64,000 bases of DNA, from the NCBI RefSeq assembly GCF_003668995.1, contig NZ_CP033068.1, positions 2,604,001-2,668,000 on the forward strand, written 5' to 3'. The stretch's first letter is position 1, and every line of letters starts with the position of its first letter. Below the pieces are notes generated by a model. It made no database searches and was not told where the DNA came from. It saw only the letters and a list, made by a program, of their open reading frames with translations. The position numbers and the translations under genes are program-made. The DNA is from Flavobacterium sp. 140616W15 (GTDB lineage: Bacteria; Bacteroidota; Bacteroidia; Flavobacteriales; Flavobacteriaceae). This document shows positions 1-38,147 of the stretch, piece after piece.

Positions 1-13
1 TAATTAGATAATT

Positions 14-64
14 GTGTTTCTGGTTCTACCTAAAAGATTTTTGAAGTAAGAAACACTTGACCTT
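14..64 (-). ncRNA. Y-RNA-like hairpin unit (cluster 1)
   Basis: On the minus strand the conserved motif GGTCAA...TTACTTC (64 to 43) is followed about 20 nt later by a strand that pairs with it. GTGTTTCT (56-49) and AGAAACAC (21-14) form 8 perfect base pairs. The same motif recurs at 119-140 and 244-264 and, in GTCGT...GTTACTTCG form, six times at 34.1-34.7 kb beside the Ro60 gene. I infer a small Ro60-binding Y-like RNA without a tRNA-like module. No transcript evidence is available. Confidence 0.45.
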
Positions 65-71
65 AATTTTG

Positions 72-189
72 TGGAGCAGGTGGGATTCGAACCCACGACC
101 TGGGCATTAAAAGTGCTAGAAGTAAGTTAAGATTGACCTTTAGTGATAATTTCAAAACTAACCTGCTCTAACCGCTGAGCTACTGCCCC
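72..189 (-). tRNA. Interrupted tRNA-Lys(UUU) with a 45-nt insert
   Basis: The 5' part (189-162) gives acceptor GGGGCAG, positions 8-9 TA, D arm GCTC/GAGC with GG in the loop, A26 and then GG. The 3' part (116-72) gives GCA, loop CTTTTAA (anticodon TTT), TGCCC, variable AGGTC, T arm GTGGG TTCGAAT CCCAC, acceptor CTGCTCC and discriminator A. Removing 161-117 restores anticodon stem GGGCA/TGCCC and a fully canonical tRNA-Lys; CCA is not encoded. The insert lies in the 5' strand of the anticodon stem and contains the Y-like motif (140-119). It is far too small for a group I or II intron. It may be a tRNA spliced by the kinase/ligase at 32-34 kb, or a tRNA mimic that is never aminoacylated. Confidence 0.6.
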
Positions 190-231
190 ATTATTTATAA
201 ATGTATTAATCGGTAATTGTCAAAGTATATC

Positions 232-264
232 TTAAAGGTTATTGAAGTAACTTTAACTTGACCT
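232..264 (-). ncRNA. Y-like motif hairpin, first unit of cluster 1
   Basis: The minus strand carries AGGTCAAG (264-257), then TTAAAG TTA CTTCAA TAA C CTTTAA (256-232), a hairpin of nine pairs with one bulged C. It is the first unit downstream of the operator/promoter at 314-350. It matches the other two motif copies of this cluster but has no T arm. It is probably processed from the same precursor as the interrupted tRNA-Lys. Confidence 0.4.
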
Positions 265-313: not shown

Positions 314-350
314 CAAATATTCAAATTAAAGTACGCAATTATTTTGCGTA
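314..350 (-). promoter_or_regulatory. RNA-repair regulon promoter/operator, site A
   Basis: The perfect inverted repeat TACGCAATTATTTTGCGTA (332-350) lies exactly 10 nt upstream, on the minus strand, of a -7-like AATATTTG (321-314). The same arrangement and spacing occur at 5741-5778, 34033-34070, 34739-34778 and 36356-36392. Transcription would run toward position 1 through the tRNA-Lys/Y-like cluster. No standard -33 TTTG sits at the usual distance, so an activator may be needed. Confidence 0.7.
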
Positions 351-4881: not shown

Positions 4882-5034
4882 CACTATTTTTGTTTTTAGT
4901 TTTCTTTGTTTCAAGTTCAAACAAAGATTTTCTATTTTATTTACTATTTATTTCAAAAGCCAAATGCTTGACTTCAATTTTTTAACGGTTTGTTTTGCCA
5001 CAGATTTCAAGGATTAAAATGATTTTCTCTAATC

Positions 5035-5538: not shown

Positions 5539-5740
5539 GGAGATCGTTTTTTGGAAAACAATCAAAACCTCCAAATCAAGTTGCATAGAAAAACATAATA
5601 CGCTTTCGCGAAAAGTTCCCTACAATGGTGCTATACAGAAACACGCAACAGGACTTGTTTGATATTTTTAAAACCATAGACCATCTTGTCTACAATTTCT
5701 TTATTTACTTTATTTAAAAGAACGTATTTTATTTCTTGAG

Positions 5741-5778
5741 CAAATATTCAAATCATACTGCGCAACTATTCTGCGTAG
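5741..5778 (-). promoter_or_regulatory. RNA-repair regulon promoter/operator, site B
   Basis: Inverted repeat CTGCGCA / TGCGTAG (5758-5778, one mismatch) lies 10 nt upstream, on the minus strand, of AATATTTG (5748-5741), as at the four other sites. The flanks (ATTTGAATATTTGCT and AAGAAAT) also match site A. It would drive the tRNA-like cluster at 5.3-5.7 kb and perhaps slipin and the exonuclease. Confidence 0.7.
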
Positions 5779-10229: not shown

Positions 10230-10235
10230 AGAAAA

Positions 10236-15689: not shown

Positions 15690-16388
15690 CTACTCCACAT
15701 TAAACTCCCCAGTAACTCTAAAATAAGTTAGACCATAACTGTCTTTAAATTTTTCAGTTTTTAAATTTGGTTGATAAACTTCTTTAAAATCAAATTTCTT
15801 TTTTACGGCGTACCACTTTTTTTCAAATTTATATTCTTTTCCAATATATCCTTCAGTAAAATAAATAACATCATTTTTTATACTCCCATTTACATGATCA
15901 TACCATTCTTTAAATGGAGTTTTGTTTCTTTTACTTGTTTTTATGAAATCATTTGTAATTTCGAAACCTCCAAAATCTTCAACGCTCACAGGTTTTATTA
16001 ATTTAATAATTCCATTTTCAGGAGGACTAAAAAACGTACTACTCAAATCAAATGTACTCAAACAAAAACGACCCTCGTCAGAATAAATAACAAATGTTAC
16101 AGATTGTTTGCCTTCATCGATAAATGTGCCAAACGTTTGTGTTTCGGTTTGACTGTAATAAATATAAACTTGGTTTACTTTTAGAAATGGACTTTTGATT
16201 ACGTTTTGTTTTTTAATAGAATCTTTATAGGTTAAAAAGTCTTTAAAATGTTGAAAAGATCTTTTAACACTTGGGTCAAGTCCTTTAGCAATCTGATAAC
16301 TACGATATTCATCATTAATATCTATTTTTTTACTACTACAATTAATAAAAAGTAACAGTAATAAAAATACAATTATTTTATTTATCAT
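15690..16388 (-). CDS. Immunity-type lipoprotein, copy 1
   Basis: 232 residues with a lipobox (LLLFINC at about 12-18). Paralogue of 18973-19665; the C-terminal half (KPVSVEDFGGFEITNDFIKT, GLTYFRVTGEFNVE) is nearly the same. Its start overlaps the stop of the toxin-like gene by 4 bp (ATGA), so the two are translationally coupled. A lipoprotein directly behind a polymorphic toxin is typically its immunity protein; here this is inferred from order and co-duplication. Confidence 0.65.
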   Translation of the reverse strand: MINKIIVFLLLLLFINCSSKKIDINDEYRSYQIAKGLDPSVKRSFQHFKDFLTYKDSIKKQNVIKSPFLKVNQVYIYYSQTETQTFGTFIDEGKQSVTFVIYSDEGRFCLSTFDLSSTFFSPPENGIIKLIKPVSVEDFGGFEITNDFIKTSKRNKTPFKEWYDHVNGSIKNDVIYFTEGYIGKEYKFEKKWYAVKKKFDFKEVYQPNLKTEKFKDSYGLTYFRVTGEFNVE

Positions 16389-18312: not shown

Positions 18313-18514
18313 AATTCTATAATTTTTCGATGTTTTTTGTGTTATGTGTAGCTCAAAAAGTTTCTTGTAATGTTCTTCTGTTGTTTGGCGAGGTTGAAGG
18401 ATAAAAATACAAGATTTTTCAGACAAAAACAAATTTTTAAAATATAAAACCATCTTTTAAATATAGCCTAAAACCCAAATCTTGCAAAGCATGTGTTACT
18501 GGAGGCTTGTTTTG

Positions 18515-18972: not shown

Positions 18973-19665
18973 CTACTCCACATTAAACTCTCCAGTAACT
19001 ATAAAATATACCAAACCATATTTGTCTTTATATTTTGTGGCTTTTAAATTGGGCTGATATATTTCTTTTAGATCTGTTTTACGAGTTTTTACAAGCCATT
19101 TTTTTTTTAACTTATAACGGTTTGTTCCAATATATTTTTCTGTAAAATGAATGGTATTATTTTTTATAGTACCATTAACATAATCATACCATTCTCTAAA
19201 CGGTGTTCTACTTCTTTTTCTAGTTTTAATAAAATCGTTTGTGATTTCAAAATCTCCAAAGTCTTCAACTCGAATTGGCTTTATTACTTTGACTATCCCG
19301 TTTTCAGGAAGACTCAAAATTTCCCCATTCATATCTAAATCAAAAGTATTTATACAGAAAGTACCCTCGTCAGAATAGACAGAGAATTCTACAGAATTGT
19401 TTGTTCTATAATGAACATAAACTTGATTTACTTTTAGATAAGGGTTACTCGTTATTTGTTGTTTCTTCTCATATCTCATGTATTCTAAATAATACTTATC
19501 ATAGTAGCTATCATTAATAGCTGCATCTTTATCCATTTTCTTAGTATCTATTAAATATTGTTTAAAAGCTGTATCTGTATATCCAAATGATTTTGATGCC
19601 GTACAACTATTAAAAAGTATAAGGACTAATAGATTTAAAATTATTTTATTTATTTTGATCTTCAT
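18973..19665 (-). CDS. Immunity-type lipoprotein, copy 2
   Basis: 230 residues, lipobox ILFNSC near residue 20. Paralogue of 15690-16388 with a diverged N-terminal half and a well conserved C-terminal half (VEDFGDFEITNDFIKTRKRS, VTGEFNVE). It overlaps the toxin-like gene by 20 bp. Divergence between the two copies is concentrated here and in the toxin C-terminus, as expected for a toxin/immunity pair changing specificity together. Confidence 0.65.
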   Translation of the reverse strand: MKIKINKIILNLLVLILFNSCTASKSFGYTDTAFKQYLIDTKKMDKDAAINDSYYDKYYLEYMRYEKKQQITSNPYLKVNQVYVHYRTNNSVEFSVYSDEGTFCINTFDLDMNGEILSLPENGIVKVIKPIRVEDFGDFEITNDFIKTRKRSRTPFREWYDYVNGTIKNNTIHFTEKYIGTNRYKLKKKWLVKTRKTDLKEIYQPNLKATKYKDKYGLVYFIVTGEFNVE

Positions 19666-21567
19666 TATTATTATCTTCTATTTTATAAAATTCTTGTAAT
19701 AATTTTGTTTTTTCGGGTATACCTGCATCCAAATATGTTCTTACTCGTTCTAAATCGGATTCTTTCGAATTTTCCTTGTACACAACAAAAAGATGATGAA
19801 AAGTTGGATTTCGTTTTAAATCTTTACTTTGATTATAGTTTTCTAAATCTCTTTCATATTGAATTCTATCTTTTTCATATTGAACATTATCTTCATAATA
19901 TGTTTCATCATTTTTATAATCTCGTCTAATTGGCATTTTTGGTTCTTTTGGTATCGTTGGAAACTTAATCGTATCATGCATTTTATTCGATGGCCAAAAT
20001 GTTCCATAACCAAACTTAGTTGATGTGTTTAAAATCCCATCGGCATCTGTGAAAGAAAATGTTTCTTGTCCACGATTTAACAAAACATCAAACAATTGTT
20101 GATGGTCATAGTTTTGACCGTTAATCATTTTATCAAGATTGTAAGGGTTTTTATTATTTGATTTTCCGTAATATAAATCGAAAGCGTAAGCCATACTTAT
20201 TTTACCAGTTAATTTGGCTTGCATATTTACACCTGCTGACCAGTATTGGTCGGAATCCATGCCAAGAAATAGTGGGGTTTATAAATGTCATTGTAAGACG
20301 AAATCATAAAATTGCCTAACTTGATAGATGCACCACCCACAATTTGATTTCTGTTTGGGTTGTCTTGGGAATTGTACGGGTCTTTTATTCTATTTCCAGC
20401 TTTATCATAATTATTAGTACCTTTTCCTGAACTTAATACTCCTGTTGAACCCACAGTGAAAGCATATTCATAGGGATTGTTTATCCCCGAACCAGTAAAG
20501 TTTGTAAACAAATTCATATTGAGAGAGTTTCCGGTTGTAACTCCCAATGTTACAGCAGGCGTGAGTGTGGCATTAAATAAATTACGGCTTAATGATGAAG
20601 TACCAGGGGCACCGTAACCATAATAAGTTAAAGCAGCATTTAAACTTGGCATTAAATGCATATCGCCTGCTCTTGCCACTTCTTTTGAAATTCCTGCATA
20701 CAAACTTGCTGAAAAACCACCATTAAGACTAAAACTAAATTTCAATCCCATATTTAAAGGTGGGTCACTAGGACCAAGACTAGCACTTGAATCTTCATAG
20801 TCATCAAAATCTACTGGATTTGGACCCCCTCGTGTATTTCTATTTTGTCTATAATGATTTGTTTGCGGTTTTATGGTTTCTTCTTTAGGGAAACTAATTT
20901 CTAAATTTCCGTTATAGTTTGGCGATTCCAATTTTGCAATAATTACTATGGTATTACCCAAAGCGTCAAACTTGAAAAGGTCGTAGTCATATATTTCTAA
21001 ATTATCTTTGGGGCTTAAATCGTCTTTTAGAAGTGTATCGATATATTTCCCATAAGATGTTGTGAGTCCTGAAGCTAATTTTATTTTTTTGTCATTGTCT
21101 TTCTCTATATTTTTTAAATCATGTTCCCAAACTACAATTTTTTCATTTTGTACATCATAAAAAGCAATATCACTTGAATGTGGATTTTTAGAAACTATAA
21201 TTGATGGATTAACAACTTTTCCATCTGCAATTTTTTTGTACAATTTGTAAACAATACCTGTATTGTCTTCAGTAAATTTTGTAACCATTTCAGAAGCTAC
21301 ACTTTTAATGTGATCGTGAATATAAGTACTTTCTAGCTTAAACTCACTTTCTTTAATTTCATTTTTTGGTATTTCAAAATTTGGTTCACCAAATACAACA
21401 CCATCTTTTCCTTTGACTATATTTTTTTTATTTGAGATTAACTTTAAGTCATCCTTTGTTGCTACTATTGATATTTTTTCAGCGATTTCGAATATTTCTC
21501 CTGCAATAACTGTATGTGTACCTTTTACATTGATATACATATTCTTGGCTTTTTTGCATATTCCCAT
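19646..21567 (-). pseudogene. Polymorphic toxin (type 23-like), copy 2, frameshifted
   Basis: Starts at ATG 21567 and reads intact through the site where copy 1 is broken, but loses frame at four G (20274-20277) where copy 1 has five (17019-17023). The C-terminal part reopens from about 20260 to 19646. Repaired length is about 640 residues. The first 440 residues are almost identical to copy 1; the last 120, including the Lys/Glu-rich linker and FHHLFVVYKENS, differ more. Each copy therefore holds the intact version of the other's defect. Confidence 0.6.
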
Positions 21568-21772
21568 AATTCTATAATTTTTCGATGTTTTTTGTGTTAT
21601 GTGTAGCTCAAAAAGTTTCTTGTAATGTTCTTCTGTTGTTTGGTGAGGTTGAGGAATAAAAATAAAAGATTTTTCAGACAAACACAAATTTTTAAAATAT
21701 AAAACCATCTTTTAAATATAGCCTAAAACCCAAATCTTGCAAAGCATGTGTCACTGGAGGCTTGTTTTGTCG

Positions 21773-23075: not shown

Positions 23076-24797
23076 TTAATTTATATGATTGCGCCAATAA
23101 TCAGGAAAATATGGTGTTTTATAGTAATAGTGAGCAATCGTTCTTAGTGAAGAAAATCCACATTTATCAGTTTTATATTCATATTGAAATTCATCTTTTC
23201 TTTTTAAAAGCTTCTTCTTGAAATCTTCATAGGATAATTCTTTATTGAAATCAGAGAACATATTGGTTTCAATTTGATATCCATCAAATACAGATTTAGA
23301 AAATAATTGTTCTTCTAAGTCATTTTCGCAATCTTCAATGAGATGCTTTGAATTAGAATTAATACCTTGATGTGGAACAAATAAACCTAAAGTAATATCA
23401 TTTTCAATTACAAATTTTCTTGTATCATAATATGTTTGTTCTAAATCTAAAATTACAATATATTCCATCAATACAGCTAACAATGGAGAAATTGAATCTA
23501 TATAATACACTGGTTTTACACTTGTAACAGTATATTTAATAACACTTTTAATGTTATTAGCAGCATCAGGAAACTTATTGTAATTCTTTTTTAGAAACTT
23601 TAAATATCCTAAAACATTCATTAAATATTGTTTTGCAAATTCTTTATCTCCGAAATAAATTAGCAAGTTTAGTGAATCAATTATTGGAATAGAATGTATG
23701 TCAAGCAATGGTCTTGATAATACATTGTTATTTTGTAAAGTATTGTTTATTCTATCAATGTACCCTTTAAATTCTTCTTTTTGAATTTTGTCTTTAATAG
23801 AAAATATAAAAGAATTTAAAACAACAATGAAATCAAAACTTCTGGTTGTATAGCCTATTTGTTCATATCTACCACTATCCTCATAATACAAACCATCTTT
23901 TAACTCTAAAAGTCTTAAATTTCTTTCTAGATATTCTTCAATAACTGTGTTGTAAAACTTATAAAATTGATTGAATAAACCTATTATTTCCTTACTGGTA
24001 TCTAATTTGTTTTTTAAAATCCAAAACCAATATTTTAATATTAAATGTGTTAGGTATTTTTTAGCAATTGATAAGTTATTGTAGTTTTTTGATTCTGTAT
24101 AAATTATATAAGCTATTAAATTAATAGATTGAAATATGAGCTTTTGTTTACGGTTAAGGTTGCCTTTCTTTTTAGAAAATGAATTTTTAAACAACAAATT
24201 ATCTATTAATACATCAAAATCATTTGATACATTCTCAACAACATTTAGATTCACTAAAACTCTATTAAAAAGCCTTATATTCTCATCATTAATCAAAAGA
24301 TATTTGTTAAATATTTCATTTGATAATAATTCTGATATTTTAAAAATATTCCATTCTTCAAATTCAAAGCCTTTATCTATAAATTCTTTTTGTGAAAATC
24401 CATTAAGAGTTGTTCGAATTTTTTCACTAACCATGCCGTTAAAAACTAAAATAACTTTAATAGGTAATTTATCAAAATCCTTATAGGTAGTTTTGAAATC
24501 AGCATCAACAGTCATTGTAAGAGTATCTCGTACACCGTTACCAGGCATATTCCATTTTTGGCTATCAATATCGCCTGCTTTTAATTCAAAATAGAAACGT
24601 TTTTTAACACCATCCGTTGGGTCTATTCTTACTGTTACTATATCTTTGCCATATTGAGAAAAACCTTTATACTCTTTAGGAGTTGAAAGTATTTCATATT
24701 CAAGCGTTTGAAGTAGAATTGTAAAAATTACATCTAATTCATTATCTTCCTTTAAAGATTGTAAATATTCCTTTATTATTGTTGGTTTGATGTTCAT
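23076..24797 (-). CDS. PD-(D/E)xK nuclease-like protein, helical C-terminus
   Basis: 573 residues. The first 90 have the spacing of a restriction-endonuclease-like fold: Glu33, Asp52 (QYGKDIV), then Glu71-Leu-Lys73 (FYFELKAGD). The remaining 480 residues are helical, rich in Leu/Ile/Tyr/Asn, without recognised motif. The start codon overlaps the stop of the preceding gene by one base, so the two are coupled. The pair lies between two RlaP-type nucleotidyltransferases. A nuclease that creates ends in this operon would fit, but defence or repair roles are both open. Confidence 0.6.
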   Translation of the reverse strand: MNIKPTIIKEYLQSLKEDNELDVIFTILLQTLEYEILSTPKEYKGFSQYGKDIVTVRIDPTDGVKKRFYFELKAGDIDSQKWNMPGNGVRDTLTMTVDADFKTTYKDFDKLPIKVILVFNGMVSEKIRTTLNGFSQKEFIDKGFEFEEWNIFKISELLSNEIFNKYLLINDENIRLFNRVLVNLNVVENVSNDFDVLIDNLLFKNSFSKKKGNLNRKQKLIFQSINLIAYIIYTESKNYNNLSIAKKYLTHLILKYWFWILKNKLDTSKEIIGLFNQFYKFYNTVIEEYLERNLRLLELKDGLYYEDSGRYEQIGYTTRSFDFIVVLNSFIFSIKDKIQKEEFKGYIDRINNTLQNNNVLSRPLLDIHSIPIIDSLNLLIYFGDKEFAKQYLMNVLGYLKFLKKNYNKFPDAANNIKSVIKYTVTSVKPVYYIDSISPLLAVLMEYIVILDLEQTYYDTRKFVIENDITLGLFVPHQGINSNSKHLIEDCENDLEEQLFSKSVFDGYQIETNMFSDFNKELSYEDFKKKLLKRKDEFQYEYKTDKCGFSSLRTIAHYYYKTPYFPDYWRNHIN

Positions 24798-26668
24798 TAT
24801 TTATTGAATCTTTCAAGTTGGTATTCAAATAATTCAGGGTTTTTATAAGCTCTTGTATCTATATACATTTGAGTTTCAACTTTACCTAAAGGCATAACAT
24901 TTTCTTCATGTTCAAAACGCCAACTATTTCCTCTAATAATTGATGTGTTTTTAAAAAAACTAGAAAGACCAGAAGGATTATTCCTAATACTTTCCATCAT
25001 TTTAGCTCTATTTTCGTTTTCTAAACTATAATATAGATCCATAAATGATTTTTCGTTATAATATGGGTTCAAGTCGTTATTCTTATATTTTAATTTTTTA
25101 TTTTCTCTATATAAATCAAGAGTTTTTTTTATTGGTTTTAGAAAAGTTGCTTTATTTCTTGATTTAGGGATTAAATTTTCTAACCATTCTATTAGGTTTT
25201 CGTGATAACATTCATAAACAAGAGTACCTAATTCTCTTTGAAGGCTCTCAACTACTTTTGAAAATTTAGAATCTTTTAATCTTAGTAGTACGGGTAAGAG
25301 TTTATCAAACGAATGAGGGTAACTGCAAATCATTAGTATTGCTAATATTTGGTCTTCTTCTGTCTGTATTTTTAACAAATCAATTTGCATTGAATTTTCT
25401 CTCCCTGCCACTATTATTTCAATTGGTAGTAATCCATTTTTTAGTTTTATCGATATTAGTGATAAAATGAATTCTTCCATTTTTTCTCTTGAATTTGACC
25501 AAAAATGTGATAATGGTTCTTCAAAAATATTAATTGATTTTCTATGTCCACCATTATTATAAATAACACTTATTAAATGAAATAGATATTTTGGTTCTTT
25601 AAAATTATTAAAGTAAGTACTTACCACTTTAATATTTTTTGTCCGACTCAAGTAGGCAAGTAAAAGTTCGTATTTTAATTCTTCCATATTTTCAAAACTA
25701 TATGAAAGTATATCAAAATAACTATTTACCTCATTATCATCTGGGTTATTAAAATATTCAAATAATTTGTTTGGTATCGTTTCAGAATCTTTAGAAGAAA
25801 AAAACTGAGAATTCATCAAACTTTCAATAATTTTAGTTTTATGGGATAAGTATTCAGTACTATTATCTTTTTGAATGATTTTTAATAGTTCATCATAAAC
25901 TAAGTGAGAGTTTAAATTTAATAATGAATAAGCCCATAGTATTTCCTTTGTATTATTTATTAACCTTTCTCTTAGTTTTTCTAAATATTCTATTTTACCT
26001 TTATTGATTATTGAAATAATTAGAATTACTAAATAGTGAGGCGTTTCTTCTTGGTGTTTGCCTATAAGATTTTGAATCAAACTTATTGAAAAATTTTCTT
26101 TTTTTTCAACAATTGAATGGAGATAATTGTTTAAATGGTATCTGCTATTTTCATCATTATTTACTTCTAAAAATTCAATAATTTGATCTATCTCTATATC
26201 TTTGAATGCAAGAAAATTATAAAATAAGCTATCAAAATTTTTTAATTCATAAATAACATTTATTTGTTTTTTCAGTTCATTGTAATATGAAAAAATATTT
26301 ATTCCTTTACTATCTAACTCTACTAAATAACTAACTTTAAATGCATTAAATATTTCAGAGTAAGCATTTATTATATTTTCATATTCATTCTCTACTTTTA
26401 TTAATTCTTCAAGCGTATAAATAGTCTTAAAAGATTCACTAATATCTTCAGATAAGCTACTATTTAGTTTTGTTGAAACTAACTTTTTCAAATAGTTATA
26501 TACTTCAATGGAATATAAATCGACTTCATATTTACCCTGAGTATTTGCTTTAATTACACTTTTTTTTTCTAATTCAGAATATTTTTTTATTTCTTGAGAA
26601 TCAATTGAAGTTTCTCTCCTTTTAAAAATATGTGTGAATAAATTTTCTATCTGTTTTAGTTCTTTCAT
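24797..26668 (-). CDS. Large helical protein, partner of the nuclease-like gene
   Basis: 623 residues, AT-rich codons, Leu/Asn/Lys/Glu-rich and almost wholly helical by composition. Stretches such as YHLNNYLHSIVEKKENFS and HLISVIYNNGGHRKSINIFE suggest HEAT/TPR-like repeats. A conserved-looking C-terminal segment (GNSWRFEHEENVMPLGKVET) ends the protein. No enzymatic motif. It starts 5 bp after the intact RlaP gene and overlaps the nuclease gene by one base. Unknown family; likely a scaffold or sensor for the nuclease. Confidence 0.55.
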   Translation of the reverse strand: MKELKQIENLFTHIFKRRETSIDSQEIKKYSELEKKSVIKANTQGKYEVDLYSIEVYNYLKKLVSTKLNSSLSEDISESFKTIYTLEELIKVENEYENIINAYSEIFNAFKVSYLVELDSKGINIFSYYNELKKQINVIYELKNFDSLFYNFLAFKDIEIDQIIEFLEVNNDENSRYHLNNYLHSIVEKKENFSISLIQNLIGKHQEETPHYLVILIISIINKGKIEYLEKLRERLINNTKEILWAYSLLNLNSHLVYDELLKIIQKDNSTEYLSHKTKIIESLMNSQFFSSKDSETIPNKLFEYFNNPDDNEVNSYFDILSYSFENMEELKYELLLAYLSRTKNIKVVSTYFNNFKEPKYLFHLISVIYNNGGHRKSINIFEEPLSHFWSNSREKMEEFILSLISIKLKNGLLPIEIIVAGRENSMQIDLLKIQTEEDQILAILMICSYPHSFDKLLPVLLRLKDSKFSKVVESLQRELGTLVYECYHENLIEWLENLIPKSRNKATFLKPIKKTLDLYRENKKLKYKNNDLNPYYNEKSFMDLYYSLENENRAKMMESIRNNPSGLSSFFKNTSIIRGNSWRFEHEENVMPLGKVETQMYIDTRAYKNPELFEYQLERFNK

Positions 26669-26673
26669 AAATG

Positions 26674-27420
26674 TTATTCTATCATCTTTCTAAAAAACAA
26701 ATCCAACTCCTCATTCATCTTCTTCCCGCTTCCTAAGGTACTTGTATTTTCTTGATTAAACTTCACAGTTCCCAATAAAAAATCAGTTATTAAAATTTCT
26801 TTTGGGTGCAAATACTTTTCGTCTTGATTGGCTTTTATATTTTGTAATTCTATTATTTTATCTTGTATGTTTTGTGGTGCTATTGGTAATAAATCAGCAA
26901 AAGCAACAGGCGGAAAAGTATTGTTTTCTATAATCCATTTCCCTGCTAAAGCAGTTCGTAAAGCATAGAAATAACTTTTTAGTTTTACTTCTTCCATTTC
27001 GCAAACATCCATAAAGTTTTTAGTCGTTCCTAAATAATGATGTAAAGTCGCTATTGGCGAAAAACATTCTCTGGCTAACTCTTGCATTTCTTGCAAAAAT
27101 GCATCGTTTTTATAATACACCACAGGCGAAAACAACCACTCAATCAAAGGTGCGTTAGATTTTGATAATAACTTTATGGCTTTCCGCAAATCCCAACCTG
27201 AACCATCCAAATCATCTTCGGTCATAAAATCGATAACATCTGGTTTTTCCCAAAGCGATAAATAATATTCTGGTTTGTGTTTGTATATAAAACGGATATC
27301 ATAGTCACTATCAGGAGACGCAAATCCCCAAGCACGACTACCCGATTCGCAAGCAAAAAGTATTTCGACTTGCTTGTCGTTTTCTATTTCTTTTAATTTT
27401 TCTAGTATTTTTTCTTTCAT
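26674..27420 (-). CDS. RlaP/YcgL-type nucleotidyltransferase
   Basis: 248 residues. Nucleotidyltransferase core ESGSRAWGFASPDSDYDIRF gives GS and the D-x-D metal site; the helical C-terminal part (YFYALRTALAGKWIIENN) is typical of the COG3541/RlaP family. RlaP proteins are predicted to add or transfer nucleotides at RNA ends during repair. First gene of an operon with the helical protein, the nuclease-like protein and a second, frameshifted RlaP. A TACATTTG -7 element lies 10 bp upstream of its ATG; the RNA-repair operator palindrome is absent. Confidence 0.75.
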   Translation of the reverse strand: MKEKILEKLKEIENDKQVEILFACESGSRAWGFASPDSDYDIRFIYKHKPEYYLSLWEKPDVIDFMTEDDLDGSGWDLRKAIKLLSKSNAPLIEWLFSPVVYYKNDAFLQEMQELARECFSPIATLHHYLGTTKNFMDVCEMEEVKLKSYFYALRTALAGKWIIENNTFPPVAFADLLPIAPQNIQDKIIELQNIKANQDEKYLHPKEILITDFLLGTVKFNQENTSTLGSGKKMNEELDLFFRKMIE

Positions 27421-32124: not shown

Positions 32125-32997
32125 CTAAAAATCCCCATAATACACTTGGAAGCACGGTAATTTCAGATCTTTTCGCCATGTATCTACTACTTGGTTTCTA
32201 TCATCGAGAACAAACTCTACAAAGTATTTATCTTTTATAGATTCGTTATAGATTTCGGTTTTGATGATCGAATCTTTTCGGTTATCCTGACTTTTTCGCA
32301 TGATTAGGTCATCGAATTCTATTGTATGTTTTTCAAGAAACCTCAACGTTGGTTCTTTGTATCTATTTTCTCTACCTGAAACCAACAATATTTCATATCC
32401 TAATTTCTTGTAGTTTCTCAACACATTAGCTACTGGTTCATTTAATTCATCCTGATCGCATTTACTTGCATCAAAAGGATTTCTCCCATTCATTAATGCC
32501 AAAGTTCCATCTAGATCGCAGATAATTGCTTTTGGCAATTCTGGATTTTGGATTGCGTATTCTGGTGAATCTTTAAAAAATTGTTCATGCATTTTTCGAA
32601 TCACTTTTTCTCCAACTGGTTTTTCTCTTAATGCATCTCGCTCAATACAAACTGCAACATCTGTATTTACTTCGATAACCTCAACAATAACCTTTTCGTT
32701 GTATTTTGTGTTGTATTCCTGAACCAATTGTGTAACTCGTCTCATATTCGTTTCGGATAAATTAGTATCATCTACCACGATACTTTTTCCTTCTTCCAGA
32801 CATTTTACGATTAAAATATCACGTACTTTTTTTACAAACTTTTCATTGCTTTGGCTTGTTGTTCCGTTATCGAACATTGCTCGTAAATCGTCTCTATTGA
32901 TTCTTTTATATGATTCTGGATTCTCTGAGATTATCTTTTTCGCCAAAGTCGATTTTCCACTTCCAGGCAATCCTTTCATTAAAATTACTTTTCTCAT
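32125..32997 (-). CDS. pnkp: T4-type polynucleotide kinase-phosphatase
   Basis: 290 residues, the length and order of T4 Pnkp. N-terminal kinase with P-loop GLPGSGKS (9-16) and INRDDLR; C-terminal HAD phosphatase with ICDLDGTLALMNGRNPFD, close to T4 Pnkp's DVDGTL motif. It heals RNA ends by making 5'-phosphate and removing 3'-phosphate or 2',3'-cyclic phosphate. The ATG begins one base after the RNA ligase stop, so heal and seal are one operon under promoter site C. tRNA is the classical substrate of the T4 pair; here the interrupted and permuted tRNAs are attractive candidates. Confidence 0.9.
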   Translation of the reverse strand: MRKVILMKGLPGSGKSTLAKKIISENPESYKRINRDDLRAMFDNGTTSQSNEKFVKKVRDILIVKCLEEGKSIVVDDTNLSETNMRRVTQLVQEYNTKYNEKVIVEVIEVNTDVAVCIERDALREKPVGEKVIRKMHEQFFKDSPEYAIQNPELPKAIICDLDGTLALMNGRNPFDASKCDQDELNEPVANVLRNYKKLGYEILLVSGRENRYKEPTLRFLEKHTIEFDDLIMRKSQDNRKDSIIKTEIYNESIKDKYFVEFVLDDRNQVVDTWRKDLKLPCFQVYYGDF

Positions 32998-32998
32998 T

Positions 32999-34015
32999 TT
33001 AGTTTTCTTCTCTATTAAATGGTTTTTCGAATGTTGGTCGAATCATTCTCCAAATTATTTCTGAATAATCTCTGTTTTTAAGCATTGCAAATAATACTCC
33101 CTGATGTTTACATGTTTGAAAATACAAGGCTGTTTCTTTGACAGTTTCGAATACCTTATAATCTGCTTTACATTGATTTTCGATTACCGCATATTGATTT
33201 TCTAAATCTCTTTTTGTTTCTTTCACCCAATTGAAAAATTCATCAGGAACACGTTCCAAAACTTCTTGTATTGGTTGGTTGGTTTTCAAATATTCCCAAA
33301 TGTTCAAATTAGAAACCTGAGTGATGATTCGGTGCAAACGAAGATATTCTTCAAATTTGATTTTGACTCTAAAATTATTCGAATATTTAATAACAAACCC
33401 TTCTTTATTGTCTTTATTCATTGCTGCTAATGAACCAATATCGTTAATTCCGTCGTATTTTTCTACAATAGGAAAACCAATATCTTCCAGCGCAAACTCT
33501 TCTCCCGATTGGATATCGATAATTGCCAGTAAAACCAATTCTTCTGCAGCTCCATAATCTAAAACAATTCGATTTTGAGGATATATAATCTCAAATAAAT
33601 AAGTTTTATTTTTATCCAAATGCGACCATGATTTTTTGTATTTCCCATGTAACATTTTGTTTGCTTTATCTGACTGATCACTTGAAAACGAACCTCTACT
33701 GGCTATAAATGGTATTTCATCTATCCAATACAAAATCCCCATTGAACCATCGGCTTTATCATACACTTCAAAAGTTGTATTAGGAATTGTTTGGTTTTCC
33801 ATTTCTCCTAAATTAAAGAACTTAGGAAATGGTCTTGCAATCACATTAAAATTTTCATCAAGAATTAATCCTCTACAGTTTAATGTAACCTCATTCCATA
33901 TTCTTTCGAATTGGGCACTTTGGGTATAATTATAAATGTATAAATCATAATTAGGGTGTTTGTTTACTCTAATATAATTTTTGGAAATCATCTCTTTTAA
34001 TAATACTGTATTCAT
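32999..34015 (-). CDS. T4 Rnl1-type RNA ligase
   Basis: 338 residues. Nucleotidyltransferase motif I KADGS (Lys87 the predicted AMP-accepting lysine), upstream CRGLILD and ARPFPKFFN as in T4 Rnl1, motif III LFEIIYPQNRIVLDYG, motif IV EGFVIKY and motif V RVKIKF. It joins 3'-OH to 5'-phosphate RNA ends, the reaction T4 Rnl1 uses to reseal tRNAs cut in the anticodon loop. It is first in the operon with pnkp and starts 18 bp downstream of the -7 box of site C, so the leader is short. Confidence 0.9.
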   Translation of the reverse strand: MNTVLLKEMISKNYIRVNKHPNYDLYIYNYTQSAQFERIWNEVTLNCRGLILDENFNVIARPFPKFFNLGEMENQTIPNTTFEVYDKADGSMGILYWIDEIPFIASRGSFSSDQSDKANKMLHGKYKKSWSHLDKNKTYLFEIIYPQNRIVLDYGAAEELVLLAIIDIQSGEEFALEDIGFPIVEKYDGINDIGSLAAMNKDNKEGFVIKYSNNFRVKIKFEEYLRLHRIITQVSNLNIWEYLKTNQPIQEVLERVPDEFFNWVKETKRDLENQYAVIENQCKADYKVFETVKETALYFQTCKHQGVLFAMLKNRDYSEIIWRMIRPTFEKPFNREEN

Positions 34016-34032: not shown

Positions 34033-34070
34033 CAAAGATTCAAAAACTACTACGCATTTATTTTGCGCAG
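34033..34070 (-). promoter_or_regulatory. RNA-repair regulon promoter/operator, site C
   Basis: CTACGCA / TGCGCAG inverted repeat (34050-34070) 10 nt upstream of AATCTTTG (34040-34033) on the minus strand, directly before the RNA ligase start at 34015. Confidence 0.75.
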
Positions 34071-34097
34071 TTTTTAATTTTAAAAGAGGTAATGTTT

Positions 34098-34147
34098 AGG
34101 AATGGTTTAATTTTCTTTGGAACGAAGTAACCATTTCCTGACGACAC
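34098..34147 (-). ncRNA. Y-RNA-like unit 6 (short hairpin)
   Basis: Motif GTCGT...GTTACTTCG on the minus strand; AGGAAATGG (34139-34131) pairs with CCATTCCT (34105-34098) with one bulged A. The loop is about 25 nt and holds no tRNA-like module. Last unit of the array, just before promoter site C. Confidence 0.5.
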
Positions 34148-34168
34148 TCTTTTTTTAAGAGCAATATT

Positions 34169-34218
34169 GTATAAGTGATGATTTTCATTAAGAGACGAAG
34201 TAACACTTTATACACGGC
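34169..34218 (-). ncRNA. Y-RNA-like unit 5 (short hairpin)
   Basis: GCCGT then GTATAAAGTG (34213-34204), which pairs with CACTTATAC (34177-34169): nine pairs with one bulged A. GTTACTTCG follows the 5' strand. The repeat period to its neighbours is 71 nt on both sides. Confidence 0.5.
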
Positions 34219-34249
34219 ATCTACTAAAATTTGAAAAAGTAACAATTGA

Positions 34250-34288
34250 TGAAAGTCTTTTTGGAACGAAGTATCTCTCACACACGAC
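34250..34288 (-). ncRNA. Y-RNA-like unit 4 (short hairpin)
   Basis: GTCGT motif, stem TGAGAG (34280-34275) with CTTTCA (34255-34250), six pairs including one G-U. The 5' strand is followed by ATACTTCG, a one-base variant of the conserved GTTACTTCG. No tRNA-like module. Confidence 0.45.
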
Positions 34289-34317
34289 ATTTTTCGGTAA
34301 AAAAAGAAGTAAAAAGC

Positions 34318-34426
34318 AATAAGAGAAACGGGGCATGTCTAGCCAGAGTCGAACTGGATAACCTTGCTGATTCTACAACTTCGTTATTCCTCCCCTTAAT
34401 GGGACGAAGTAACTCTTATTTACGAC
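34318..34426 (-). ncRNA. Y-RNA-like unit 3 with divergent tRNA-like insert
   Basis: Stem AATAAGAG (34420-34413) with CTCTTATT (34325-34318), eight perfect pairs, flanked by GTCGT on the 5' side and GTTACTTCG. The insert has a T-arm-like CCAG TTCGACT CTGG and a GGGG/CCCC pairing in linear order, so it differs from units 1 and 2. A CTTCGT/ACGAAG hairpin may compete. Confidence 0.5.
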
Positions 34427-34458
34427 ATTCTTTTATTTTATAATATTGGATAATAATC

Positions 34459-34565
34459 AATAAGAGACTATATAATTGTGTGTTACCATTTCACTATCAG
34501 TCTAAACAGAACAGGATTCGAACCTGTACTACAATTCCCCAGAAGTAACTCTTATTTACGAAACC
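34459..34565 (-). ncRNA. Y-RNA-like unit 2 with permuted tRNA module
   Basis: Outer stem AATAAGAG (34556-34549) / CTCTTATT (34466-34459), eight perfect pairs. Inside, 34536-34474 folds as AATTG, TAGT, T arm ACAGG TTCGAAT CCTGT, acceptor TCTGT TTAG ACTGA, TA, D arm GTG AAATGGTAA CAC, A, CAATT. AATTG/CAATT closes the anticodon stem. This is the clearest Y-RNA architecture in the window: a conserved terminal stem for Ro60 plus a tRNA mimic. Confidence 0.6.
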
Positions 34566-34594
34566 AATACTTTTTTTTTAAAACAAGGCAACTA

Positions 34595-34715
34595 GTAATA
34601 GGTGACATGTCCTGCTCTAACCACTGAGCTACATTCCTGTAATTAAACAGAATTGGTGGGGTTCGAATCCACGTCCTGGGCGTTATCAATGCGAAGTAAC
34701 ACTTATCTACGACAC
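34595..34715 (-). ncRNA. Y-RNA-like unit 1 with permuted tRNA module
   Basis: GTGTCGTAGATAAGTG (34715-34700) pairs through GATAAGTG with CACCTATT, ending near 34595 (seven of eight). The T half (34692-34656) is close in sequence to the 3' part of the interrupted tRNA-Lys, with an Ile-like loop TTGATAA. The acceptor CAATTCTG/CAGGAATG is closed by TTTAATTA and followed by D arm GCTC/GAGC. First unit after promoter site D. The 5' strand resembles the Ro-binding strand of animal Y RNAs by eye. Confidence 0.55.
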
Positions 34716-34738
34716 TTGTTTTTATTTTTTTTCTGTTG

Positions 34739-34778
34739 CAAAGATTCAAATACTACTGCGCAATTATTTCGCGCAGTA
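34739..34778 (-). promoter_or_regulatory. RNA-repair regulon promoter/operator, site D
   Basis: TACTGCGC / GCGCAGTA perfect 8-bp arms with a 9-bp spacer (34754-34778), 10 nt upstream of AATCTTTG (34746-34739) on the minus strand. It drives the six-unit Y-like array; it also sits just after the Ro60 stop codon. Confidence 0.75.
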
Positions 34779-34789: not shown

Positions 34790-36307
34790 TTACAATTCTA
34801 TTCGGTTAATGTAATTTAATGCACTTCCTTTATCTTCTAAAGCATGCAATACATCAAACACTTTGTCTGACCAACCAGCTATTAAATAAACATCGTTTTT
34901 TTCTATATTTATTGGTACCTGACCGTAACCAGCCAAATCAAACAAATACAATTTCGCATTTGGTGCAATACTTTTGTATCGATTCCATGATTTTGCAAAT
35001 GAATCATTTGTCATATTACTATTCCACATTTGAACATCTGTAAACAACATCACTTTATCTACTATTTCATTTCGGTAGATTAAATCTTCCAAGACCAAAT
35101 GACCGTTTGTAGAATAACCTACTTCACCTTCACGTTTGTAATATTCATTAACATTAGACAATACGCTTCGTTTTGGCATATTGATTATTTTCCATCGGTC
35201 ACCAAACATACCGCTCACCACATTTTTGCAACGACTTTGCATCAACATACCTAACATTAAACCTATATCATACAACATTACTTTACTTTTCGGTGATATG
35301 TTTTGTTGCATAGAACCCGAAACATCGCAAGCGATCACAACAGCTGTATTGGTGGCAAAACCTTTTATGTTTTGAGCACTGACCATTACAGCACTTTCTA
35401 AAGCATCCAAAACTATTGAAGTGTATTTTGATGGCAAGTCTTTTAACTCACGATATGCAGCCAAGAATCGGAATGGTAACTGTTTCGAGTTCAAAACGGC
35501 TTTTTCATTAGCAAGGTAATCACATACTTTTTCGATATGAAAACCAGACACATTTGCCTCCATGATGTTTCGCAAATTACGCATCAAAGCCATATAACCT
35601 ATTTTGTTGCTATCGATCAATTCTTCCCATTTTTGAGTGAATGCTTTTTGTTTTTCAGCATCATTTTTATAGTTAGACTGACCTAATTTTGACAATTCGG
35701 TTTCCCAAGTGTAAGGTGTTTCTAAAGTATCGTTCACTATTTTATTGAACAACGCTTGTTGTGCTTCATCTTTCGCTTTTGGATGAACCAAAAACAAAGC
35801 GTCTTTTAATTTCACCACACCATCTCGGTTGTATTTTGCAAATTGGTACTCATCAAATTTATTGAATGAATACGCCAAACCTTTTTGTATTTGTTTAGAC
35901 AAACGGTTTAATTTTTTAACACCATTTCGGTCGTTTGCCATTTGATAATACGCTAATAATTCGGTTATCTCATCTGCACGTTGGATTACATGTGTGATCA
36001 TTTTACTGATTAAAGCATCTCCTGAATATATTTTAGCCAACTCGACTATCAAAACTAATGGTACTGAACGCATATGCATTTCATTACGGGCATAAACCGC
36101 TAACTTGGCTACGAATACTGGGTTGCTTTTTTGAATTAAATCTTTTATTCGATCCAAACGTGTTGTATCTTTCTCATAAAACGATGCATTCAAACTTGTT
36201 GTCACAACTGCTCCGTACAATTCGTATTCTGGTGTTAACGGAAAAGCAACAGCATTTTCGTAATTAACTATATTTTTTTTCTCTTTATTTAAAAAATTGA
36301 ATTTCAT
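34790..36307 (-). CDS. rsr: Ro60/Rsr-type TROVE-vWA RNA-binding protein
   Basis: 505 residues, normal for bacterial Ro60. The N-terminal TROVE region is a helical ring (TPEYELYGAVVTTSLNASFY, ARNEMHMRSVPLVLIVELA). The C-terminal von Willebrand A domain carries a complete MIDAS, DVSGSMQQN near residue 330, with later T and D residues (FTDVQMW). Ro60 rings bind misfolded RNA ends in the central hole and Y RNAs on the outer rim. The Y-like array lies immediately downstream on the same strand and site E upstream, so protein and RNAs are coregulated. Confidence 0.9.
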   Translation of the reverse strand: MKFNFLNKEKKNIVNYENAVAFPLTPEYELYGAVVTTSLNASFYEKDTTRLDRIKDLIQKSNPVFVAKLAVYARNEMHMRSVPLVLIVELAKIYSGDALISKMITHVIQRADEITELLAYYQMANDRNGVKKLNRLSKQIQKGLAYSFNKFDEYQFAKYNRDGVVKLKDALFLVHPKAKDEAQQALFNKIVNDTLETPYTWETELSKLGQSNYKNDAEKQKAFTQKWEELIDSNKIGYMALMRNLRNIMEANVSGFHIEKVCDYLANEKAVLNSKQLPFRFLAAYRELKDLPSKYTSIVLDALESAVMVSAQNIKGFATNTAVVIACDVSGSMQQNISPKSKVMLYDIGLMLGMLMQSRCKNVVSGMFGDRWKIINMPKRSVLSNVNEYYKREGEVGYSTNGHLVLEDLIYRNEIVDKVMLFTDVQMWNSNMTNDSFAKSWNRYKSIAPNAKLYLFDLAGYGQVPINIEKNDVYLIAGWSDKVFDVLHALEDKGSALNYINRIEL

Positions 36308-36355: not shown

Positions 36356-36415
36356 CAAAGATTTCTGAAGTAGTGCGCAGTTATTTTGCGTAGCAAAAAA
36401 AGAATTTTATATTTG
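36356..36415. promoter_or_regulatory. Bidirectional regulon operator, site E
   Basis: TGCGCA / TGCGTA inverted repeat (36374-36392). Leftward it is 10 nt from AATCTTTG (36363-36356), serving the Ro60 gene. Rightward, TTTG (36385-36388, inside the repeat) is exactly 19 bp from a perfect -7 TATATTTG (36408-36415), serving the HD and WYL genes. A regulator bound here would control both directions, including the putative regulator's own gene. Confidence 0.7.
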
Positions 36416-37133: not shown

Positions 37134-38147
37134 ATGTCACAAAATAAAAATGCCTTAATACGCTACAAAACAATCGATAAATGCCTGCAGAACCAATACA
37201 GGACCTGGACTCTCGACGATTTAATCGAAGCCTGTTCAGATGCATTATTTGAATATGAAGGTCGTGAGAACCGAATAAGCAAACGTACCATACAAATGGA
37301 TATTCAACTTATGCGTAGCGAAAAACTCGGATACAATGCTCCTATCGTAGTTTATGATAAAAAGTTTTACAAGTACGATGAAGAGGATTTCTCAATTACT
37401 GATATTCCACTTACAGAAACTGATATGAATGTTCTAACAGAAACAGTTTCTATGCTAAAACAGTTTAAGGATTTCTCCTTATTTAGTGATGTTTCGGATA
37501 TTTTACAGCGTTTGGAAGATAAAATCTATTCGGAGAAATCGCATACTAATTCGGTAATTTATCTTGATAAAAATGAAAACTTAAAAGGATTACATTATCT
37601 AGATGAAATTTATCAAGCCATCATCAAAAAAATTGTTCTTGTTATCACCTATAAATCTTTTAAATCCAGAGAAGAACAAAAATTTAATTTTCATCCTTTT
37701 ATTTTAAAGGAGTTTAACAATCGTTGGTTTTTGGTAGGAAAGAAAAAAGGGGGGCAGCCGATAACCAATTTAGCTCTTGACCGAATTACCAGTATCGATT
37801 TTGATTTTAACCTCCCTTATATAGAAGAAGTATTTGATGCCGAGGATTTTTATAAGGATGTGGTTGGGGTAACTGTGAACCAAGGAATGAACGCTAGAAA
37901 AATTGAACTTTGGATTGATAAAGAAAATGCTCCTTATGTTTTAACAAAGCCTTTTCATGCTTCGCAAAAGCTAGAAAAAGAAAATGAGGACGGAAGCATC
38001 ATTATTACACTAAAACTCAAGACTAATTATGAAATAGAACGCTTGCTTTTGGGTTTTGGTGATGGATTAGAAGTTATTAGTCCCAATGGATTGCGATTGC
38101 GGATAAAAGATAAACTAAAGAAAGCTTTACTTAAATATGGAGAATAA
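37134..38147 (+). CDS. WYL-domain transcriptional regulator
   Basis: 337 residues. N-terminal helix-turn-helix (about 15-65, WTLDDLIEACSDALFEYEGR ... SKRTIQMDI), a middle linker, and a WYL domain around 165-230 (IVLVITYKSF, FHPFILKEFNNRWFLVGKKK, LALDRITSID), then the WCX-type C-terminal extension. WYL proteins sense nucleic-acid-derived ligands in several stress and defence systems. It is the only regulator in the RNA-repair locus and shares the site E promoter, so it is the best candidate to bind the five palindromes, possibly in response to RNA ends. Confidence 0.8.
   Translation: MSQNKNALIRYKTIDKCLQNQYRTWTLDDLIEACSDALFEYEGRENRISKRTIQMDIQLMRSEKLGYNAPIVVYDKKFYKYDEEDFSITDIPLTETDMNVLTETVSMLKQFKDFSLFSDVSDILQRLEDKIYSEKSHTNSVIYLDKNENLKGLHYLDEIYQAIIKKIVLVITYKSFKSREEQKFNFHPFILKEFNNRWFLVGKKKGGQPITNLALDRITSIDFDFNLPYIEEVFDAEDFYKDVVGVTVNQGMNARKIELWIDKENAPYVLTKPFHASQKLEKENEDGSIIITLKLKTNYEIERLLLGFGDGLEVISPNGLRLRIKDKLKKALLKYGE

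What the first reader, a model, noticed from the sequence alone, without database searches (positions are those of the whole stretch)
34098..34715. Six-unit Y-RNA-like array between RNA ligase and Ro60 genes
The minus strand repeats GTCGT-stem-GTTACTTCG six times with periods of about 150, 137, 138, 71 and 71 nt. In each unit the 5' stem strand pairs with a later strand (AATAAGAG/CTCTTATT perfect in units 2 and 3) while stem sequences differ, i.e. compensatory change. Units 1 and 2 contain permuted tRNA modules, 4-6 are short hairpins. Known Y RNAs come singly or in small numbers; a tandem array of mixed types next to Ro60 appears new.
Basis: partly seen in the sequence, partly recalled or inferred. 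Interest (0 to 1): 0.9.

Follow-up and report, generated by a model that had tools for sequence, protein, structure and literature searches.

The report
Tandem Y-RNA array beside Ro60
Next to the gene for the ring-shaped RNA-quality-control protein Ro60, this Flavobacterium-type genome carries six small RNA genes in a row that share one docking handle but end in different imitations of tRNA or plain hairpins, and relatives carry up to eleven, some imitating a piece of the ribosome.

Summary
A profile trained only on other genomes finds exactly these six units (minus strand, periods 151/136/138/70/73). Downstream of Ro60, 79 of 80 sampled relatives have 3-11 units. Two stems and a diagnostic U-A/C-G pair covary strongly in 241 distinct units, with no broken pair at that position. 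The common handle is: basal stem, bulged U, G-Y/R-C, internal loop, 8-bp stem, UUACUUCG. The heads vary: permuted tRNAs (T-arm before D-arm, as in Rfam YrlA), T-arm-only hairpins, another T-loop RNA, short hairpins and, in 15 of 80 loci, a 23S rRNA-like segment. One palindromic operator precedes Ro60, the array, the RNA ligase and a second array; it occurs only these four times in the 4.9-Mb genome. Best reading: co-induced Y RNAs that bind Ro60 and present different RNA mimics during RNA repair. Transcription, Ro60 binding and mechanism are inferred. Bacterial Y RNAs near Ro60, several per species, were reported before (recalled; paper not held), so I call it a new variant. The mixed tandem array, the rRNA-like head and the inverse tRNA-Y chimera are the surprising parts.

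The parts
34580..34722 (-). Unit 1: Y handle (S1 ACAAG/CTTGT; box TGTCGT/TTGCC; S2 GATAAGTG/CACCTATT) with a permuted tRNA head (anticodon-like loop TTGATAA, T-arm, acceptor hairpin, D-arm)
   Evidence: head class 0 (100 units in 66 loci)
34442..34571 (-). Unit 2: Y handle (S1 ATTGG/CCAAT; S2 AATAAGAG/CTCTTATT; box departs: TTTCGT/TTATC) with a permuted tRNA head, YrlA type
   Evidence: Rfam YrlA full length 23.1 bits; class 2 (38 units in 35 loci)
34301..34435 (-). Unit 3: Y handle (S1 AAAGAA/TTCTTT; S2 AATAAGAG/CTCTTATT) with a T-loop RNA closed by GGGG/CCCC
   Evidence: class 1 (55 units in 55 loci)
34231..34297 (-). Unit 4: short Y hairpin (S1 GAAAAA/TTTTTC; S2 TGAGAG/CTTTCA)
34153..34227 (-). 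Unit 5: short Y hairpin (S1 short, AGA/TCT; box TGCCGT/TTGC; S2 GTATAAAGTG/CACTTATAC)
34081..34154 (-). Unit 6: short Y hairpin (S1 AAAAGAG/CTCTTTT; S2 AGGAAATGG/CCATTCCT)
   Evidence: RNAfold z -3.41
34757..34774 (-). Operator palindrome GCGCGAAATAATTGCGCA before the array
36374..36391 (-). Operator before Ro60
   Evidence: a looser form before Ro60 in 70 of 80 loci
34051..34068 (-). Operator between the array and the RNA ligase gene
34790..36307 (-). Ro60/Rsr-type protein, TROVE + vWA, 505 aa
   Evidence: Pfam PF05731 E 9.8e-29; related solved structures 9l5y, 9kop
32999..34015 (-). T4 Rnl1-type RNA ligase, 338 aa
   Evidence: PF09511 E 1.1e-17
32125..32997 (-). Polynucleotide kinase-phosphatase (AAA_33 + HAD_PNKP), 290 aa
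   Evidence: PF25109 E 9.7e-51
26674..27420 (-). RlaP, RNA repair nucleotidyltransferase
   Evidence: PF10127 E 4.2e-76
37134..38147 (+). WYL/WCX transcription factor, candidate reader of the operator (assignment inferred)
   Evidence: PF13280, PF25583; a WYL homologue in 41 of 80 loci
332..349 (-). Operator before a second Y-like array
1..264 (-). Second Y-like array (AGGTCAA...TTACTTC): two hairpins around a tRNA in normal order (72-189) whose anticodon arm carries a permuted Y helix; leads into a 746-aa ORF outside the window
   Evidence: two to four exact copies of the motif before all 21 homologous ORFs found

Best explanation
A tandem array of Ro60-binding Y RNAs made from one operator-controlled promoter. 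Each unit has the same handle: a basal stem with a bulged U and a G-C/Y-R step, an internal loop, an 8-bp stem, then UUACUUCG. On the handle sits an interchangeable head that imitates a structured RNA: tRNA opened at the anticodon or D-loop, a bare T-arm, another T-loop RNA, in some relatives 23S rRNA helices 69-71, or a plain hairpin. Array, Ro60 and the RNA ligase/kinase genes share an operator, so they should be induced together by RNA damage or a related signal. The transcript is probably cut into single Y RNAs that bind Ro60. Each head then brings Ro60 to a different partner that recognises the imitated RNA (PNPase, ligases, processing or modifying enzymes) and gates the ring, so one Ro60 yields a set of RNA-repair or RNA-decay particles. 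Shown: array, handle covariation, mimicry, context, operator. Inferred: transcription, processing, Ro60 binding, partners, inducer.
For: Profile hits are strand-specific and local: 500 forward, 488 of them in the 5 kb after position 9400 (Ro60 ends near 9515), against 3 reverse and 0 in random copies of 20 loci. 79 of 80 loci have 3-11 units. Handle: Y-R pair TA 114, CG 105, TG 22 and no other of 241 distinct units; six S1 pairs 88-98% Watson-Crick against 40-67% expected. It holds in 46 units under 70% alike, and both pair forms occur in 46 of 78 loci, the window counted as one. S2 scores of 16 or more in 64% of 502 units against 11% with other units' stems. Mimicry: YrlA model hits; T-arm before an AGCTCA D-arm in 125 units, the reverse order in 1 (set of 570 units); 33/33 nt of 23S rRNA, 23S-like segment in 15 of 80 loci. 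Context: Rnl1, PNKP, RlaP here, RtcB in 31 of 80 loci, in 30 of them after Ro60. Operator four times in the genome, all at this regulon, a looser form before Ro60 in 70 of 80 loci.
Against: No transcript or binding data. YrlA matches are all below Rfam's gathering score of 69 bits, and nothing in the array reaches a gathering threshold. Single window units do not fold better than shuffles except unit 6. With another way of choosing the 3' ends, 6 of 307 units break the Y-R pair. 147 of 397 units failed the S2-only choice and were left out, window unit 2 among them, and units with a 9-nt gap (109, plus window units 5 and 6) were not tested there. Half of the window's units are plain hairpins with no evident mimic. 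The 23S-like head is not in this genome; in a sample of the order its pattern is in 4 of 395 genomes, all one genus.
Confidence: 0.68

Rival explanations
1. Decoy array: the heads are sacrificial targets or competitive inhibitors for RNases that attack tRNA anticodons and 23S rRNA (anticodon nucleases, ribotoxins), with Ro60 only stabilising them.
For: At least 25 units place the loop CTCATCA or CTCATTA directly after UUACUUCG, and a few others place TTGATAA, TTGTTAA or CTTTTAA there (window unit 1 has TTGATAA). The window pairs Rnl1 with PNKP, as in T4, where they mend cut anticodons (general knowledge), near an Olokun-type defence pair. Hughes et al. raise YrlA as a competitive inhibitor of an anticodon nuclease (PMC7790460, passages read).
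Against: The conserved, covarying Ro60-type handle and the T-arm-only and short-hairpin units are not needed for a decoy. The same passage says that the YrlA domain is not a substrate of that nuclease.
Confidence: 0.2
2. Cis-acting leader: the structures regulate the following RNA ligase (or RtcB) gene, like a set of riboswitches or T-boxes, and are not independent RNAs.
For: The array lies directly before the ligase gene here, and RtcB lies after Ro60 in 30 of 80 relatives. The second array is a leader of the 746-aa ORF.
Against: The ligase has its own copy of the operator after the array (34051-34068). In the Chryseobacterium loci looked at closely (L059, L070) other genes lie beside the units and no ligase was found with the queries used. 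Units stay with Ro60, not with one downstream gene.
Confidence: 0.07
3. Debris: decayed tRNA and repeat copies without present function.
For: Individual units are A+T-rich and fold weakly. Unit number and type differ between close relatives.
Against: Covariation with no violation at the Y-R pair in 241 units (6 of 307 with the other choice), strand and position specificity, units in 79 of 80 loci, shared operator.
Confidence: 0.03

Closest known systems
YrlA (Rfam RF02553), bacterial Y RNA of Salmonella and others
   Same: Near Ro60 and RNA-repair genes; basal stem from the two ends; tRNA-like domain with T-arm before D-arm; full-length sub-threshold model matches
   Different: 3-11 units in a row with different heads, incl. 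T-arm-only, GGGG/CCCC T-loop RNA, 23S-like and plain hairpins; scores below Rfam's cut-off; palindromic operator, whereas the Salmonella operon is under RtcR
Salmonella rsr-yrlBA-rtcBA RNA-repair operon (PMC7790460, passages read)
   Same: Ro60 + Y RNAs + RNA ligase; RtcB also lies after Ro60 in 30 of 80 relatives
   Different: Two Y RNAs there (yrlB, yrlA); here Rnl1 + PNKP + RlaP in the window, a WYL-family regulator nearby, one operator shared by separate promoters
Metazoan Y RNAs (recalled, no call)
   Same: Basal stem with a bulge, conserved boxes and a second stem; bound by Ro60
   Different: Single genes, no tRNA or rRNA mimicry; homology of the handle not tested
Deinococcus radiodurans Rsr-Y RNA-PNPase particle, RYPER (described in PMC8394870, passages read)
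   Same: Model for a Y-RNA head that recruits a nuclease to Ro60
   Different: Partners of the heads here unknown
CRISPR array
   Same: Short conserved stretches alternating with variable ones; the nearby WYL protein matches CRISPR-associated WYL models
   Different: Repeats are imperfect and base-paired with covarying partners, variable parts resemble tRNA/rRNA; no Cas nuclease or adaptation protein among the ten proteins scanned, only WYL models and a weak Cas3c match to the WYL protein

Membership tests
Bacterial Y RNA (YrlA-type) | Encoded near a Ro60/TROVE gene | tested here: met
   34081-34722 lies directly 3' of Ro60 34790-36307; 79 of 80 sampled loci have units after Ro60
Bacterial Y RNA (YrlA-type) | Stem formed by the two ends of the RNA | tested here: met
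   S1, box and S2 covariation
Bacterial Y RNA (YrlA-type) | tRNA-like domain with T-arm before D-arm in at least one Y RNA of the species | tested here: met
   Units 1 and 2; not in units 3-6
Bacterial Y RNA (YrlA-type) | Reaches the gathering score of Rfam RF02553 (69 bits) | tested here: not met
   23.1 bits for unit 2; best in the four relatives' loci scanned 45.8. Not filed as an Rfam YrlA member
Bacterial Y RNA (YrlA-type) | Expressed and bound by Ro60 | not testable with these tools
   no expression or binding data
Ro60/Rsr protein | TROVE ring domain plus vWA domain with DxSxS motif | tested here: met
   PF05731 E 9.8e-29; PF25045 E 5.1e-05, 23.7 bits, below its 27.7 cut-off; DVSGS in the sequence; 9l5y matched over residues 15-492
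Rsr equivalog NF041674 | Reaches NCBI cut-off of 900 bits | tested here: not met
   26.2 bits
T4-type RNA repair (Pnkp + Rnl1) | Adjacent kinase-phosphatase and Rnl1 ligase | tested here: met
   32125-34015; Rnl1 below the NCBI equivalog cut-off, 65.2 of 242.25 bits

The most novel reading that the evidence does not exclude
A modular RNA display system: one docking handle for Ro60, repeated in tandem and loaded with a changing set of imitations of the cell's essential RNAs (tRNAs cut open at different points, tRNA arms, 23S rRNA helices 69-71), plus a parallel array with a different handle (AGGTCAA, no bulged U) and an inverse chimera (a tRNA in normal order carrying the Y helix as its anticodon arm) placed before a second conserved protein. 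All are switched on by one operator with the RNA-repair enzymes, so cells and phages would keep a stock of decoys or adaptors for the RNAs that ribotoxins attack.
Probability: 0.35. Interest if true: 0.92.

Novelty: new variant of a known kind. Interest (0 to 1): 0.8.

Why it matters
What bacterial Y RNAs do beyond recruiting PNPase in Deinococcus is open. Arrays that keep the Ro60 handle fixed and vary the head are a natural experiment: the heads name the RNAs or RNA-binding partners involved, and the fixed handle defines the Ro60 recognition code. An rRNA-imitating Y RNA would extend tRNA mimicry to the ribosome and would link Ro60 directly to repair or decay of the RNAs cut by toxins. The system occurs in many named Flavobacterium and Chryseobacterium strains, so it can be tested.

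Tried and rejected
Single-unit thermodynamic folding did not support structure except for unit 6; covariation was used instead. A structure model of the 746-aa protein behind the second array was unusable (mean pLDDT 47) and profile comparison with Ro60 gave no homology (probability 6.7), so the idea that it is a second Ro60-like ring is unproved; no fold search was run on that model. A call of anticodon loops by pattern was swamped by T-loops; only loops directly after UUACUUCG are used. The 18-20-nt rRNA matches of other units are not counted. In one search the list for the strand that carries the 16S gene was complete and had no match inside 16S; the list for the other strand was cut short, so the 23S-like segment was recounted by pattern. 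Rfam on four loci listed no rRNA family. The 23S-like pattern was absent from viral contigs. CRISPR array, T-box/riboswitch leader and tRNA debris were considered and ranked low. Literature: nine of ten searches used; none of the listed papers was, by title and abstract start, about Y-RNA arrays in Bacteroidota or rRNA-like Y RNAs, but only the listed top results were seen and the core papers on bacterial Y RNAs are not held, so absence from print is not established.

Full report
WHAT IS THERE. The window's minus strand holds, between a Ro60 gene (34790-36307) and an Rnl1-type RNA ligase gene (32999-34015), six copies of a two-block motif, TGYCGT-8/9 nt-NTTACTTCG. The profile used to score it was trained only on other genomes (220 instances). 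It gives 17-34 bits to the six units, no other minus-strand hit of 6 bits or more in 64 kb, at most 8.1 on the plus strand, and no hit of 16 or more in 20 first-order random copies. In the whole 4.9-Mb genome a stricter form of the motif has six matches, four of them in this array, with two for the reversed pattern.

RELATIVES. A scan of one genome per species with a 15-protein Ro60 alignment (A1) found 357 relatives, of which the best 80 were kept (L011-L090): by record title Flavobacterium, Chryseobacterium, Epilithonimonas, Pedobacter, Chitinophagales, unclassified Bacteroidota, and one MAG labelled Limnohabitans. They are the nearest relatives, not a random sample. At 12 bits these 80 loci hold 500 hits on the Ro60 strand, 488 of them between 9.4 and 14.5 kb (Ro60 ends near 9.5 kb), against 3 on the other strand and none in random copies of 20 loci. 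At 11 bits 79 of 80 loci have 3 to 11 units after Ro60 (L054 and L059 have 11); the exception, L065, ends about 200 bases after Ro60. The Ro60 protein itself is patchy: in an even sample of the family a match in 2 of 299 genomes, one of them the window's own. In viral contigs 26 of 56 Ro60 loci have at least one hit of 13 bits, up to nine in L098 on both sides of Ro60; five of the 26 are near-copies of others and several are single weak hits.

THE HANDLE. I chose the 3' end of each unit by the inner stem alone plus TTRC and then counted the other positions. Of 397 units with an 8-nt gap 250 passed (241 distinct); 147 were dropped, among them window unit 2, whose box reads TTATC. Units with a 9-nt gap (109, plus window units 5 and 6) were not tested this way. 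The Y of TGYCGT and the R of TTRC form T-A 114, C-G 105, T-G 22 and nothing else; 50% Watson-Crick would be expected from the column make-up. R was limited to A or G by the search, but C-A was free to occur and did not. With a different choice of ends that also used the basal stem and allowed T at R, 6 of 307 units break this pair. The six basal-stem pairs next to the box are 88-98% Watson-Crick against 40-67% expected, and sliding the partner by 1-2 columns drops them to 71% or less. Thinning to 46 sequences less than 70% alike leaves the result unchanged (C-G 23, T-A 19, T-G 4), and 46 of 78 loci (window counted as one) contain both T-A and C-G forms. The inner stem, used for the choice, was tested separately: own stems score 16 or more in 64% of 502 units, stems borrowed from other units in 11%. 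In the window the basal stems are ACAAG/CTTGT, ATTGG/CCAAT, AAAGAA/TTCTTT, GAAAAA/TTTTTC, AGA/TCT (short) and AAAAGAG/CTCTTTT. Energy folding of single window units is unremarkable except for unit 6.

THE HEADS. Of 501 units with a proposed 3' end, 426 passed the score used for clustering (75 dropped); 139 have heads under 45 nt, the rest fall into recurrent classes: permuted tRNA opened at the anticodon (100 units in 66 loci; window unit 1), a T-loop RNA closed by GGGG/CCCC (55 in 55; window unit 3), a second permuted-tRNA class (38 in 35; window unit 2), T-arm-only hairpins (18), a 166-173-nt head resembling 23S rRNA (14 in 14), an unexplained hairpin with loop GAATAACAGTA (13), and rarer ones, including tRNAs opened at the D-loop (L040, L079, L086; read by eye). 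A simple pattern finds T-arm before an AGCTCA D-arm in 125 units and the opposite order in one (the set is the 570 units, viral loci included). It misses the window's own units because of sequence changes, so it is a lower bound. Several heads begin with a plausible anticodon loop, for example CTCATCA/CTCATTA (25 units), TTGATAA in the window's unit 1, CTTTTAA and TTGTTAA. The isoacceptor names these suggest (Met, Ile, Lys, Asn) are my reading.

THE 23S-LIKE HEAD. In Chryseobacterium arachidis (L070) the head at 11610 begins with 33 bases identical to 23S rRNA of the window's genome and to one other place in its own genome, which is its own 23S gene. That place and a copy of the operator were the only other matches of the 2.4-kb array at E 0.001 or better (40 of 121 first candidates were scored). 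Fourteen clustered heads align over this segment (13 Chryseobacterium and L036), then continue with about 130 conserved bases that did not align to the 23S stretch tried. By a pattern the segment is present in 15 of 80 loci, the fifteenth being L077. The segment is helix 69-71 by E. coli naming, which I recall. A longer pattern was found in 4 of 395 genomes of the order, all one genus, and in no viral contig. L036 is filed as a Limnohabitans MAG but carries a Flavobacterium-like locus, probably a binning error.

KNOWN FAMILY. Rfam finds nothing in the array at its cut-off. With permissive settings YrlA aligns over its full length to unit 2 (23.1 bits, E 0.023 in 801 nt) and to units of L079, L070 and L055 (45.8, 42.2, 40.2 bits; E 5.5e-7 to 2.3e-5), all under the 69-bit cut-off. 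The YrlA model itself has the T-arm first (alignment), so permuted tRNA is a known Y-RNA trait, not a new one.

REGULON. A palindrome RCGCRAAATAAHTGCGYA occurs four times in the genome and never in reversed form: before Ro60, before the array, before the RNA ligase, and at 332-349. A looser form lies 40-250 nt before Ro60 in 70 of 80 loci and 20-130 nt before an array unit in 48 of 79; hits number 180 forward and 86 reverse against 3 for the reversed pattern on both strands of 1.37 Mb. A WYL gene lies one ORF away from Ro60, divergently, and a homologue is present in 41 of 80 loci; that it reads the palindrome is inference. Downstream enzymes differ: Rnl1 + PNKP + two RlaP here, RtcB in 31 of 80 loci, in 30 of them after Ro60, PNKP in 8 and Rnl1 in 5 of 80 when sought with the window's proteins, which may miss distant ones.

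SECOND ARRAY. The operator at 332-349 leads into three motif copies of another type, AGGTCAA-stem-TTACTTC, and then, just outside the window, a 746-aa ORF. Of 150 genomes of the genus, 21 have the ORF (the window's own included), and all 21 have two to four exact copies of the motif in the 420 bases before it. Whether the operator also precedes it in the other 20 was not tested, since the stretch compared was too short. The middle copy sits inside a tRNA in normal order (72-189, Rfam tRNA 48.7 bits; not called by ARAGORN): the anticodon arm is replaced by the Y helix, circularly permuted (AGTTTTGA ... GGTCAA-TCAAAACT-TACTTC in many relatives; with two mismatches in the window). This is the inverse of YrlA, where the tRNA is permuted within the Y frame. 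By eye it is kept in 20 of the 21 (not in L179). What the 746-aa protein is remains open.

HOW IT MOST LIKELY WORKS. Shown: handle, heads, context, operator. Inferred from the Deinococcus and Salmonella work (PMC8394870, passages; PMC7790460, passages): Ro60 binds the handle, the head recruits a partner. Different heads on one handle are best explained as a set of adaptors, or, second, decoys. [quoted passage not shown]

NOVELTY. From memory, Chen et al. 2014 described Y RNAs near Ro60 in over 250 bacteria and phages, at least one per species with a tRNA-like domain; I could not read it. I therefore rate the array as a new variant of a known kind. The mixed heads, the 23S-like head, the inverse tRNA-Y chimera and the shared operator are what I would expect a specialist not to know.

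Noticed in passing
window 5452-5670 (minus), operator-like site 5759-5776: A third non-coding RNA with T-arm/D-arm pieces of permuted tRNA behind a weaker copy of the operator (3 mismatches), before an SPFH/slipin gene (3784-4920) and an RNase_T exonuclease gene (3189-3734); 68-77% alike over 124-233 nt to stretches in 14 of 80 loci, all 14 with a slipin homologue.
   Followed up: partly
L070 4550-4960: Operator followed by tRNA halves strung together in permuted order, between exonuclease and slipin genes.
   Followed up: partly
window 23076-26668: Two genes matching the PADLOC models OloA and OloB (Olokun anti-phage system; E 7.1e-55 and 9.8e-137) lying between the two RlaP genes.
   Followed up: no
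G000:C1 2601745-2603985 (minus, just left of the window): 746-aa protein, in some records named prokaryotic RING finger family 4, with thousands of relatives; behind the second Y-like array in 21 of 21 genomes looked at; fold not resolved.
   Followed up: partly
window 7137-11564: WGR/DUF6493 protein and its neighbour (442 aa, no Pfam family), found together in 13 of 80 Ro60 loci.
   Followed up: no
L098 7580-10530: A viral contig with Ro60 and nine Y-type units on both sides of it, at least two with clear anticodon arms.
   Followed up: partly
window 15690-18453 and 18973-21708: Two neighbouring near-copies of one gene set (440/191-aa and 493/204-aa ORFs share long stretches), apparently a duplication with different breaks.
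   Followed up: no
L036: Contig filed as a Limnohabitans MAG carries a Flavobacterium-like Ro60 locus with nine units, including the only 23S-like head outside records named Chryseobacterium among the 80 loci.
   Followed up: no
class 5 heads, e.g. L070 11197: Conserved hairpin with loop GAATAACAGTA in 13 units; what it imitates is unknown.
   Followed up: no
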